From positions 32,537,564-32,601,563 of the forward strand of contig CAIIXF020000007.1 of assembly GCA_903813345.2 (NCBI GenBank): a stretch of DNA of 64,000 nt, in the 5' to 3' direction. The position numbers and the translations under genes were made by a program. This document shows positions 40,701 through 46,700 of this stretch, piece after piece (the stretch's first letter is position 1; the number at the start of each line of letters is the position of its first letter). Source of the DNA: Owenia fusiformis. Taxonomy: Eukaryota; Annelida; Polychaeta; Sabellida; Oweniidae. A model generated the notes under the pieces. The model saw nothing but the letters and a program-made list of their open reading frames with translations. It had not been told where the DNA came from and made no database searches.

Positions 40701-43700
40701 CTCATTGATATCATTATCAATGATGTAATTGCTAGTCTATATGCTGGAATATGTATGTTTTGATGGTTTGAAATGGTAGAACACTATATTGACATCATTT
40801 ACTAAAAATTTGATCAACATCTGATCACTGACTGTTTGACTATAATCGGTCAAAATTAGTCAATTTTCAAGAGATTAATTACAGATCCTAGCAATGTAGC
40901 AAATTTGCTAATTACCGGTCAAAAGAGTTAAAGCTAAATAAAAAAGACAATGTTGCATTGTAAAACCTAAAGAGAGCCAGTCAGTTAGATTAAATATTAT
41001 GGCCCCACCACAAAAGGTGGTTATGGAGGATTGTTTCATAAAGAGACTGGGTAAAGTGTGCCTGCATTAAATGCTGTCCAGTACTTCAGTTGCGCTTGCC
41101 TTGACTAAACAATTGGATTAAGATTTACAGAATCTGTCCAGGTAGAATGTGTAAATTGCATATCTTTGCAGTAAACCTACATTTCAAATGAAAGGTCCTA
41201 TCATTTAAGGTATTTAACACAAAAATATTTAATTAATGTGAATGACATATTTTCCCTTTCAGGGAATGTCTCCAGTCTAGTCCAGTATTCAGATGTGTTC
41301 TTACAGAACCATATTGGAGGGAAGCAGTTATTACGACTCTCAAACCAGGACATGCTAGCTATGGGGATAACATCTGTGGGACATATCATTGAATTAATGG
41401 TAAGTCACAGCAACTCTCAAACCAGGACTTGCTAGCTATGGGGATAACATATGTGGGACATATCATTGAATTTATGGTAAGTCACAGCAACTCTCAAACC
41501 AAGACATGCTAGCTATGGGGATAACATCTGTGAGACATATCATTGAATTAATGGTAAGTCACAGCAACTCTCAAACCAAGACTTGCTAGCTAAGAGGATA
41601 ACATCTGTGGGACATATCATTGAATTAATGGTAAGTCACAGCAACTCTCAAACCAAGACATGCTAGCTATGGGGATAACATCTGTGAGACATATCATTGA
41701 CTTAATGGTAAGTCACAGCAACTCTCAAACCAAGGCATGCTAGCTATGGGGATAACATCTGTAAGACATATCATTGACTTAGTGGTAAGTCACAGCAACT
41801 CTCAAAAAAAGACTTGCTAATTATGGGGATAACATCTGTGAGACATATCATTGACTTAATGGTAAGTCACAGTGACTCACAAACCTAGACATGCTAGCTA
41901 TGGGGATAACATATGTGGGATATATCATGGAATTAATGGTAAGTCACAGCGACTCTCAAACCAAGACATACTAACTATGGGGATAACATCTGTGAGACAT
42001 ATTATTGAATTAATGGTAAGTCACAGTGACTCACAAAACAAGACTTGCTAGCTATGGGGATAACATCTGTGAGACATATCATTGAATTAATGGTAAGTCA
42101 CAGTGACTCACAAACCTAGACATGCTAGCTATGGGGATAACATATGTGGGATATATCATGGAATTAATGGTAATTCACAGCAACTCTCAAACCAAGACTT
42201 GCTAGCTATGGGGATAACATCTGTGGGACATATTATTGAATTAATGGTAATTCACAGCGACTCTCAAACCAAGACTTGCTAGCTATGGGGATAACATCTG
42301 TGAGACATAACATTGAATTAATGGTAAGTCAAAATGACTCTCAAACCAGGACATGCTAGCTATGGGGATAACATCTCTGAGACATACCATGGAATTAATG
42401 GTAATTCACAGTGACTCTCAAACCAAGACATGCTAGCTAAGGGGATAACATATGTGGGACATATCATGGAATTAATGGTAAATCACAGCAACTCTCAAAC
42501 CAAGACATGCTAGCTAAGGGGATAACATTTGTGGGACATATCATTGAATTAATGGTGAGTGACAGCAACTCTCTAAACAAGACATGCTAGCTATGGGGAT
42601 AACATATGTGGGACATATCATGGAATTAATGGTAATTCACAGCAATTCTCAAAACAAGACTTGCTAGCTATGGGGATAACATCTGTGGGACATATCATTG
42701 AATTAATGGTAAGTCACAGCAACTCTCAAACCAAGACATGCTAGCTACGGGGATAACATCTGTGGGACATATCATTGAATTAATGGTAAGTCACAGCAAC
42801 TCTCAAACCAAGACATGCTAGCTATGGGGATAACATCTGTGGGACATATCATTGAATTAATGGTAAGTCACAGCAACTTTCAAACCAGGACATGCTAGCT
42901 ATGGCCATAACATCTGTGAGACATATTATGGAATTAATGGTAATTCACAGCAACTCTCAAACCAAGACTTGCTAGCTAAGGGGATAACATATGTGGGACA
43001 TATCATTGCAGTAATGGTAAGTGACAGCAACTCTCTAAACAAGACATGCTAGCTATGGCCATAACATCTGTGAGACATATTATGGAATTAATGGTAATTC
43101 ACAGCAACTCTCAAACCAAGACTTGCTAGCTAAGGGGATAACATATGTGGGACATATCATTGAATTAATGGTAAGTTACAGTGACTCTCAAACCAAGACA
43201 TGCTAGCTATGGGGATAACATCTGTGGGACATATCATGGAATTTATGGTAAGTCACAGCAACTCTCAAAACTAAGACATGCTAGCTATGGGGATAACATC
43301 TGTGAGACATACCATTGAATTAATGGTAAGTCACAGCGACTCTCAAACCAAGACATACTAACTATGGGGATAACATCTGTGGGACATATCATGGAATAAA
43401 TGGTAAGTCACAGTGACTCTCAAACCAAGACATACTAACTATGGGGATAACATCTGTGAGACATATCATTCAATTAATGGTAAGTCACAGTGACTCTCAA
43501 ACCAGGACATACTAACTATGGGGATAACATCTGTGGGACATATCATTCAATTAATGGTAAGTGACAGCAACTCTCTAAACAAGACATGCTAGCTATGGCC
43601 ATAACATCTGCGAGACATATCATTGAATTAATGGTAAGTTACAGTGACTCTCAAACCAAGACATGCTAGCTATGGGGATAACATCTGTGGGACATATCAT

Positions 43701-46700
43701 GGAATTTATGGTAAGTCACAGCAACTCTCAAAACTAAGACATGCTAGCTATGGGGATAACATCTGTGAGACATACCATTGAATTAATGGTAAGTCACAGC
43801 GACTCTCAAACCAAGACATACTAACTATGGGGATAACATCTGTGGGACATATCATGGAATAAATGGTAAGTCACAGTGACTCTCAAACCAAGACATACTA
43901 ACTATGGGGATAACATCTGTGAGACATATCATTCAATTAATGGTAAGTCACAGTGACTCTCAAACCAAGACATACTAACTATGGGGATAACATGTGTGGG
44001 ACATATCATTGAATTAATGGTAAGTTACAGTGACTCTCAAACCAAGACATGCTAGCTATGGGGATAACATGTGTGGGACATATCATTGAATTAATGGTAA
44101 GTCACAGTGACTCTCAAACCAAGACATACTAACTATGGGGATAACATCTGTGGGACATATTATTGAATTAATGGTAAGTCACAGTGACTCTCAACCAAGA
44201 CATGCTAGCTATGGGGTTAACATCTGTGGGACATATCATTGAATTAATGGTAAGTCACAGTGACTCTCAAACCAAGACATGCTAGCTATGGGGATAACAT
44301 ATGTGGGACATATCATTGAATTAATGGTAAGTCACAGTGACTCTCAAACCAAGACATGCTAGCTATGGGGATAACATCTGTGGGGCATATCATTGAATTA
44401 ATGGTAAGTCACAGCGACTCTCAAACCAAGACATGCTAGCTATGGGGATTACATATGTGGGACATATCACTGAATTAATGGTAATGGTACAGTGACTCTC
44501 AAACCAAGACATACTAACTATGGGGATAACATCTGTGGGACATATTATTGAATTAATGGTAAGTCACAGTGACTCTCAACCAAGACATGCTAGCTATGGG
44601 GATAACATCTGTGAGACATATCATGGAATTAATGGTAAGTCACAGCAACTCTCAAACCAAGGCATGCTAGCTATGGGGATAACATCTGTGTGACATATCA
44701 TTGAATTCATGGTAAGTCAGTGACTCTCAAACCAAGACATGCTAGCTATGGGGATAACATGTGTGGGACATATCATTGACTTAATGGTAAGTCACAGCAA
44801 CTCTCAAATCAAGACTTGCTAGTTATGGGGATAACTTCTGTGGGAATATCATTGAATTAATCGAAAGTCACAGCCACTCTTTTAGAAAAAATATTTCAGT
44901 TCCCCTCACACAATACTGTGTGAGATAATCTTGATATTAGATGTATATGTTTACATTTAACATGGCACAAGTATTGTCATAGGAAAGACAATACTGCTAC
45001 CAGATTATTTCAAGCATAAAAATGAGGAACTGTTTCAGAAAAAAAATTTGTTTGTATAGAATATGATATGTAATGTAATATACAGGGTGTCAAAAAAACC
45101 ACGGCACCCCCCTCTACAGCAAAAAGTACTTAATGTTACATGGTGTGTCATATCTCATTTTAAAGACAATTTAATTCTGGAGTTACCTGGGAAATTTCAG
45201 CTTGAAATGGTATAATTATACAGATTTACAGCTGATTCATAGTAGTTGGTATGACCACCAGTTGCTGCTCAAACAGCAGCTTATCTGGACGGATATGATT
45301 TCAATTAAAATTCAGATAAAGGTGTAGCATTGTATAATCCTCTAAGCACATTCCTCACATTCTTCAGAAATACATCCTCACTGTATTTTTTTTCAAAAGG
45401 CTCTTTGTCCATCAGTTCCTATACCCTGTTTTTCAGAACTGAACCCATATGTCCAGTGCAGTTGAAATCTGGGCTAATTCTTTCATATTCCACTTTCTAA
45501 AGATTTGACCTTTAACCAGTATACTCGGGGTGGAAGGTGTGAGAATTGTGCAAAAAATGACTTTGTGAGCTGGATGGAGTTTCTCTGAATTTTTCATCAT
45601 ATTAGGGTTTCCTGCACAAGGGATTTCGCCTGCGAAGCATAGAACTCTTGCGAACATATCTAAATATTGGTCCGAAGAAGACATACCTTGAATTTTTTAG
45701 AAAAAATAGGCTAAAAATGGAAACTACAAAAAGTCAAAATGTTCAACTCAAACAAAACTCTAGCTATTTAATATTAACACTATGTATTATTTGATGTTTT
45801 TCAGATGTTTAAGGACCTTCATTAGTGTACTAGTGTCTAGAAATAAGATAATTAAGGACAAAATATGGCATTTTTGATCATTTTCGCTTTCAGCAGTAAC
45901 ATATAGTTCCTTATATCTTAAGTTTAATGTTCACTGGTCTTTGCAATTTTGATCAAATCTGTTCTTGTACATGTCTTCTTCCATTTCAGATACAAAAAAT
46001 GTATATTGGACCACCAATGGTCATATTAGAGCTTTCAGATCTCCCCTACCCCATTTATTATGAAAAATTACTGAAACATATGAAAATGTAAAATAACTTG
46101 AATTTATAAACTTTAACAATGTTGTAGTTATTCTTTATCAATATTATGTATTATTTAATGTTTTTCAGATATTTCAGAACCTTTATTGGTATACTAGTGC
46201 CTAGAAATGAGACATTTAAGGACAAAACATGGCCTTTTTACCATTTTCGCTTTCAGCAATAACATATAGGACCTTATATCTTGAGTTAAATGCTGACTGG
46301 TTGGTGCATTCTTAGTCAGATTTGTTCTTGTAGATGTCTTCTTTCATTTAAGATATAAAAAAATGTATAGTGGATGACCAATGTTCATAGTAGAGCTTTC
46401 AGATCTCCCCTACCCCATTTATTAGGAAAAATTACCGGAAAATATTAATAAAAAGTAAAATAACTTCAAATTATGAACTTTTACAGAGTTGTACCGATTC
46501 TATGTCAATACTGTATTATTTAATCTTTTTCTTATGTTTCAGGACCCTCATTAGTATTTTAATGCCTATTCGCTTTCAGCAATAACGTATAGGTCCTTAT
46601 ATCTTGAGTTTATGCTGATTGGTTGGTGCATTCTTGGTCAGATCTGTTCTTGTACATGTCTTCTTCCATTTAGGATAGACAAAATGTATATTTGACAACC

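What the first reader, a model, noticed from the sequence alone, without database searches (positions are those of the whole stretch)
41334..44880. An array of about 46 latent mini-exons copied from the SAM exon
Each 77-base unit is 66 bases of exon 14 plus the spacer GTAAGTCACAG. The 66 bases are exactly 22 codons and begin and end in phase 0, like the true end of exon 14 ([17 protein letters not shown]). The spacer gives each copy a GT donor and ends in AG, so each copy is framed as a phase-0 cassette exon, although it lacks a pyrimidine tract. Splicing from exon 14 to any distal copy would repeat the last two SAM helices without changing frame; direct read-through instead meets TAG in the first copy (41433). 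The array could be inert, a sink of decoy donor sites for U1, or a source of SAM variants in a polymerising domain. I know of no described case like it.
Basis: partly seen in the sequence, partly recalled or inferred. Interest (0 to 1): 0.82.

Follow-up and report, generated by a model that had tools for sequence, protein, structure and literature searches.

The report
Splice-junction minisatellite ("mirage") in ZAK
A stretch covering the end of one exon and the start of its intron has been copied about 45 times in a row into the intron of the stress kinase ZAK; it looks like inert, decaying DNA of a kind already described in lancelets, but the same kind turns up at many genes across this quite different animal's genome.

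Summary
The array is real: 46 units of 77 bp at 41334-44873. Unit 1 is the end of the SAM exon of MAP3K20/ZAK; the other 45 lie in the 11.2-kb intron behind it. The mini-exon reading fails: 19 of 45 extra copies keep AG, frame, open frame and GT, and 19 of 45 begin with an in-frame TGA, a decay product of a CpG. Changes match neutral expectation and the would-be acceptors lack a pyrimidine tract. Best explanation: a neutral minisatellite born by tandem duplication across the exon-intron junction, with splicing kept on the first donor (inferred; no RNA). The class is described: amphioxus "mirages", reported not to disturb splicing, and boundary repeats in human duplicated genes, which can alter splicing. 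New here: the genome is a spiralian by Hox signatures, and junction arrays are common in it: 16 of 18 GGTAAGT arrays examined start in an exon's 3' end, against 1 of 6 control-motif arrays; 8 of 14 TTTCAGG arrays sit on an acceptor (judged by eye, partly backed by Pfam/PDB).

The parts
41263..41399 (+).
   Evidence: Acceptor TTTCAG before 41263, donor after 41399; SAM_2 2.2e-9; ZAK 9rpv 7.5e-5
41400..41410 (+). Authentic donor and first 11 nt of the intron, GTAAGTCACAG (end of copy 1)
   Evidence: Frame continues in phase 0 into 52581-52643
41411..44873 (+). Copies 2-46: 45 further units of 75-78 bp, intronic
   Evidence: TRF; unit table
43151..43504 (+). 354-bp stretch repeated letter for letter 463 bp further on (recent expansion inside the array)
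44874..44880 (+). CCACTCT just behind the last copy; with CGACTCT at 41334-41340 the likely short homology that seeded the first duplication (inference)
52581..52643 (+). Next exon, [21 protein letters not shown]: rest of the last SAM helix; expected splice partner of 41399
13588..13731 (+). First kinase exon recognised of the same gene (further kinase exons to 38378, leucine zipper 38639-38761)

Best explanation
The array is a mirage-type minisatellite. A 77-bp segment across the 3' end of the SAM exon and its 5' splice site was duplicated in tandem, probably between the short repeats CGACTCT in the exon and CCACTCT in the intron (inferred). Slippage and unequal exchange then expanded it to 46 units (supported by a 354-bp exact internal duplication). 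Splicing keeps to the first donor at 41400 (inferred from the intact exon, the phase-0 continuation and the decay of the copies; no RNA seen). All later copies are therefore intron and drift neutrally: CpG decay turns CGA into TGA or CAA, and indels and donor losses accumulate. The phase-0 framing of the copies is inherited from the seed. The effect is growth of the intron by about 3.5 kb; any protein variant is at most a rare splicing error. The same kind of array is found at other exon ends and exon starts of this genome.
For: 19 of 45 extra copies begin with TGA and 21 with CAA, the two decay products of the exon's CGA; 5 keep CGA. Change classes match neutral expectation; donor columns not preferentially kept. 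354-bp exact repeat at lag 463. Pyrimidine share before the would-be acceptors is 0.40 on average, against 0.65 and 0.80 at the true acceptors and 0.50 for all AGs of the window. The class is general here: 16 of 18 GGTAAGT arrays examined start in an exon's 3' end. Amphioxus mirages are reported to leave splicing undisturbed (passages).
Against: Copies 2-24 are still mostly open (18 of 23 pass all tests), so low-level use of a proximal copy is not excluded. 35 of 45 extra copies keep GTAAGT, so donor competition cannot be excluded. In human duplicated genes repeats at exon-intron boundaries are reported to generate alternative splicing and novel introns (PMC2812944, passages), so such repeats are not always silent. 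No RNA and no second haplotype or species was available. (Confidence lowered from 0.87 to 0.85.)
Confidence: 0.85

Rival explanations
1. Latent or used mini-exons: exon 14 splices to one or more array copies and these to exon 15, repeating the last SAM helices.
For: 19 of 45 extra copies keep AG, frame, open frame and GT, 14 of them with GTAAGT; 9 of the 46 copies contain TACTAAC, a good branch-point match (consensus recalled).
Against: 26 of 45 fail; no coding selection; acceptors have fewer pyrimidines than the average AG; exonic part not divisible by three in 9 of 14 other arrays.
Confidence: 0.04
2. Regulatory array: dozens of donors next to the true one hold U1 and affect exon-14 definition, intron retention or premature polyadenylation, so copy number tunes ZAK expression or splicing.
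For: 35 of 45 extra copies keep GTAAGT. Human boundary repeats can change splicing (PMC2812944, passages). A C. elegans study links intronic minisatellites to splicing decisions (PMC4039745, title and start of abstract only).
Against: Donor columns are not better preserved than others (donor six columns P 0.34; GT plus AG P 0.14). Predicted U1 pairing of the donor is moderate: -9.1 kcal/mol, against -14.0 for the full consensus and -8.7 for the next exon's donor. Amphioxus arrays reported harmless to splicing.
Confidence: 0.1
3. Junction-biased birth (compatible with the best explanation): something about transcribed splice junctions makes them hot spots of tandem duplication, beyond tolerance of neutral arrays.
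For: 16 of 18 GGTAAGT arrays against 1 of 6 control-motif arrays at exon ends (Fisher P 0.003); donor and acceptor sides both affected, once on the same exon (L025).
Against: The motif choice favours donors, and exon status was judged by eye and not blind. With the wide spacing the reversed motif gives nearly as many hits (1,246 against 1,568). The acceptor-motif count is not significantly above control (P 0.14). My back-of-envelope arithmetic (no call) leaves only a few-fold excess over chance placement; a full census could not be run.
Confidence: 0.2
4. Assembly artefact.
For: Tandem arrays are easily misassembled; one internal 354-bp repeat is exact.
Against: Copies differ from each other by 7.6 positions on average; unrelated arrays of the same kind are present at other genes.
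Confidence: 0.01

Closest known systems
'Mirages' of amphioxus: Adh3 (Canestro et al. 2002, not held; known here through PMC3087553 and PMC3902484), globins BflGb6 and BflGb9, troponin C, PGBD5
   Same: Minisatellite-like tandem duplications spanning an intron/exon boundary; many repeats carry AG/GT signals; donor or acceptor side; length instability; units 10-72 bp in Adh3 and 150-160 bp in the globins (passages)
   Different: Different phylum (spiralian by Hox signatures); 46 units here against 6 and 3 in the two BflGb6 haplotypes; junction arrays at some two dozen genes of one genome seen here; splicing not tested here
Internal tandem repeats at exon-intron boundaries of human genes in segmental duplications (PMC2812944, passages)
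   Same: Minisatellites at exon-intron boundaries; 27 intron modifications after manual inspection in that study
   Different: About 30-bp units repeated about 4 times, recent paralogs, reported to create novel introns and alternative transcripts; here one long array in a gene with a single phase-conserved junction
Intron gain by tandem genomic duplication (e.g. potato RdRp, PMC4974935; search listing and start of abstract)
   Same: Tandem duplication within a gene linked to splice signals
   Different: No new intron is made in ZAK; an existing intron is lengthened
Tandem arrays of alternative exons (e.g. Dscam; recalled, not tested)
   Same: Repeated exon-like units in tandem
   Different: ZAK copies lack acceptors with pyrimidine tracts, lack long introns between units, and decay as neutral DNA

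Membership tests
Mirage minisatellite | Tandem, minisatellite-like repeats | tested here: met
   46.1 copies of 77 bp, 90% matches
Mirage minisatellite | Unit contains part of an exon, the splice site and part of the intron | tested here: met
   66 nt of SAM exon plus GTAAGTCACAG; exon confirmed by Pfam and frame
Mirage minisatellite | Authentic exon boundary retained at the edge of the array | tested here: met
   Copy 1 is the exon itself, continuous in phase 0 with 52581-52643
Mirage minisatellite | Regular splicing undisturbed | not testable with these tools
   No RNA data
Mirage minisatellite | Length instability between haplotypes or individuals | tested here: inconclusive
   Recent internal duplication; one locus only found in the assembly
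Cassette-exon array | Copies keep an open frame under selection | tested here: not met
   20 of 45 open; neutral change classes
Cassette-exon array | Acceptor with polypyrimidine tract before each copy | tested here: not met
   0.40 pyrimidines on average (0.30-0.50) against 0.65 and 0.80 at true acceptors
Introner-like element | Related copies dispersed at many loci | tested here: not met
   Unit found at one locus only

The most novel reading that the evidence does not exclude
In this spiralian genome tandem amplification of splice junctions is a recurrent, genome-wide process (about a hundred arrays extrapolated for one donor motif and spacing range alone, so probably many hundreds in all), acting on donors and acceptors, born preferentially at junctions, and a main route by which introns grow and by which new exons or introns could later arise; the still-open proximal ZAK copies would be raw material of that kind.
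Probability: 0.3. Interest if true: 0.65.

Novelty: new member of a known kind. Interest (0 to 1): 0.4.

Why it matters
Taken alone, the ZAK array is a long example of a known curiosity and need not be read as a protein-diversity device. The wider result matters more. [quoted passage not shown] arrays of this kind are common in a spiralian too. They give many natural tests of how a spliceosome picks one of dozens of near-identical donors, and of whether introns grow or arise from such repeats.

Tried and rejected
Rejected: latent mini-exons; selection on the donors; a dispersed repeat family; amphioxus as host. I first thought that the intronic part of the unit is always very short (about 3-13 nt, note). 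One search gave 2-18 nt in 12 of 15 arrays and 27, 41 and 49 nt in three; two of these three (C1:13516458, C5:3182657) look inflated because the extension stopped at mismatches, while the control-motif array C1:59805599 has a truly long intronic part. I dropped the idea of a rule. One search measured 15 of 17 arrays given (C1:48509898 and C1:1050758 gave no second donor in the fetched piece; C4:20469115 was not given); for ZAK it returned 64 nt, because copy 2 has CAA where the exon has CGA.

Limits of the survey. Genome-wide numbers are extrapolations: one search lists only the first places (10 arrays in C1 up to 48.51 Mb, three neighbouring clusters at C1:36.7 Mb counted as one), one search was truncated in C8, and hit counts are dominated by large arrays. 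Exon status was judged by eye, not blind, from acceptor, open frame and donor. 11 of the 16 GGTAAGT exons have good support by Pfam or PDB (FANCI and FAD-binding lie below Pfam's own cut-offs), tetraspanin is weak (0.058), and C1:13516458, C2:31803789, C4:19721992 and C8:16840459 rest on reading frame and splice signals alone (no Pfam match; C1:13516458 also no PDB match). C1:46034168 and C5:32355231 showed no clear exon. Of the 14 TTTCAGG arrays 8 are acceptor-side and 1 is donor-side on the other strand; L043, L045 and L053 are undetermined, L048 and L054 show no exon; for 3 of those 9 exons (L046, L047, L049) there is no Pfam support (L049 was too short to search). Of the 6 control-motif loci (7 if C6:37855650 is counted apart) 1 is a junction array; in the other 5 I recognised none, but of C6:37830729 only one flank was read. 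Searches used 41262 as exon start, one base too early; the effect is negligible.

Literature: nine searches of one open-access library (lists capped, titles and abstract starts seen) found the word mirage in this sense only in two lancelet papers. Comparable repeats in human genes are in PMC2812944. The Conus paper PMC3862624 speaks, in the passages seen, only of simple repeats in introns. The 2002 Adh3 paper is not held.
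Full report
OBSERVATION. The tandem array is real and exactly placed: 41334-44880, period 77, 46.1 copies, 90% matches; cut into units it is 46 copies, 41334-44873. Copy 1 is the last 66 nt of an exon plus GTAAGTCACAG. The exon, 41263-41399, encodes most of a SAM domain (Pfam SAM_2 2.2e-9; best PDB match the DGK-delta SAM 1.5e-5, ZAK second at 7.5e-5). 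Together with the kinase exons (PDB MLT/ZAK 1.3e-18; tblastn with a recalled human ZAK bait) it identifies the gene as MAP3K20/ZAK. The next exon lies at 52581-52643 and continues the last SAM helix in phase 0, so the intron is 11,181 bp and the array fills its first 3,474 bp. The unit was found nowhere else in the 498-Mb assembly (46 matches, all here; that search scores best candidates only).

MINI-EXON TEST. I tested the 45 extra copies: 44 preceded by AG, 39 with a core divisible by three, 20 open in phase 0, 43 with GT, 35 with GTAAGT; 19 pass AG, length, open frame and GT together, 14 of these with GTAAGT. The first codon is CAA in 21, TGA in 19 and CGA in 5. The exon has CGA, so the two common states are what CpG decay gives on either strand, and one of them is a stop at the first codon of the supposed exon. 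Copies 2-24 pass in 18 of 23, copies 25-46 in 1 of 22. Distinct changes against the exon: 10 silent, 35 replacement, 4 stop; shuffling the same changes over the same bases gives 12.4, 34.4 and 2.2. The six donor columns are not better kept than random columns (P 0.34) and GT plus AG only weakly so (P 0.14). Pyrimidine share before the would-be acceptors is 0.40 on average (0.30-0.50), against 0.65 and 0.80 at the two true acceptors and 0.50 at all AGs of the window. This is how neutral intronic DNA behaves. A 354-bp exact repeat at a distance of 463 bp points to recent expansion.

ORIGIN. CGACTCT at 41334 in the exon and CCACTCT at 44874 directly behind the last copy suggest that a short homology seeded the first duplication; this is inference. 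A tandem duplication that starts in an exon and ends just behind the donor leaves the first donor in place. If splicing keeps to it, every further copy is intron and free to multiply. The phase-0 framing is inherited from the seed.

THE SAME THING ELSEWHERE IN THE GENOME. A pattern of three GGTAAGT at spacings of 48-77 occurs 999 + 569 times in G000 (reversed motif 569 + 677). The listing covers 10 distinct arrays on C1 up to 48.51 Mb. A narrow-spacing search listed 8 more on C2-C8 before its list ended. I read the flanks of all 18. In 16 the first copy is the 3' end of an exon with acceptor and open frame: Muted 3.7e-14, MBT 1e-32, NIF phosphatase 4.9e-6, Ssl1/TFIIH 3e-26, tetraspanin only 0.058; UCH protease 2.3e-8, FANCI 5.7e-6 and FAD-binding 1.2e-5, the last two below Pfam's own cut-offs; mTOR 5.5e-15, WDR35 3.3e-10, oxysterol-binding protein 1.9e-7, class-C receptor 6.1e-38 (two exons joined; the second exon alone gave no match); four others by frame and splice signals only. 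Two arrays (C1:46034168, C5:32355231) show no clear exon. For the control motif TGAATGG the listing is complete with 6 array loci; 1 of 6 is a junction array (L023, with a GTGAGT donor), in the other 5 I recognised none (one flank only for C6:37830729). Fisher P for 16 of 18 against 1 of 6 is 0.003, though the donor motif itself favours exon ends and the judging was by eye and not blind.

ACCEPTOR SIDE. TTTCAGG at the narrow spacing gives 14 arrays. 8 sit on an exon start (septin 4.8e-8, SOCS box 5.5e-7, laminin EGF 1.8e-12; HGS 7.1e-14; alanyl-tRNA synthetase only weakly, Pfam 0.034 and no PDB match; the other three by eye), and 1 is a donor array on the other strand (mitochondrial Phe-tRNA ligase, 0.009); flanks. 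Three are undetermined and two show no exon. 9 of 14 against 1 of 6 controls is not significant (P 0.14). One ubiquitin-protease exon carries an 83-bp acceptor-side array and a 54-bp donor-side array (L025; units by eye). Among 14 arrays other than ZAK that could be measured the exonic part is not divisible by three in 9, and AG precedes copy 2 in 2, so in-frame mini-exons are not what the class is about.

WHAT IS KNOWN. Such arrays have a name. [quoted passage not shown] 2002, in Adh3. It says that the data suggest no interference with regular splicing although many repeats carry AG/GT, that length is unstable, and that mirages might seed new introns. PMC3902484 (passage) adds troponin C and PGBD5, again in lancelets. 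Outside lancelets, PMC2812944 (passages) reports minisatellites at exon-intron boundaries of human genes in segmental duplications, 27 intron modifications after inspection, which can generate novel introns and alternative transcripts; this speaks against calling such repeats harmless in general. Nine searches of the held library (capped lists) showed no report from a spiralian; this is a limited search. The present genome is not a lancelet: its Hox cluster on C1 holds a gene with KLTGP behind the homeodomain (Lox5 signature) and two with UbdA-type peptides (Lox2/Lox4) (signatures recalled), so it is a spiralian. The species was not identified.

VERDICT. The ZAK array is a long member of a known kind, most likely inert. 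Its interest lies in the new host group and in how common such arrays are here: 10 arrays in 48.5 Mb extrapolates to about 100 in the genome for one donor motif and spacing range.

Noticed in passing
L025 (G000:C4:3647500-3648500, minus strand): One ubiquitin-protease exon carries tandem arrays on both sides: an 83-bp acceptor-side unit and a 54-bp donor-side unit.
   Followed up: partly
window 57733-58421: An AT-rich 25-bp minisatellite of about 27 copies begins some 50 bp behind the stop codon of the long open frame 56088-57680, i.e. in the 3' UTR or just downstream if that frame is the last ZAK exon (no Pfam support for that frame).
   Followed up: partly
window 17467-21990, minus strand: A 1508-codon open frame with gag/protease/RT/integrase-like sequence by eye, apparently a Gypsy-type retroelement inside a ZAK intron.
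   Followed up: no
window 16180-16583: Two copies of a 206-bp unit with 98% matches, a recent duplication.
   Followed up: no
window 41950-44569, nine array copies (9, 27, 28, 29, 33, 34, 35, 37, 42): TGCTAGC has become TACTAAC, a branch-point-like word, in nine copies; probably a shared mutation of one subfamily.
   Followed up: partly
L023 (G000:C1:59805300-59806900, minus strand): A junction array found by the control motif, with a short exonic part (about 12 nt), a long intronic part (about 41 nt) and a GTGAGT donor.
   Followed up: yes
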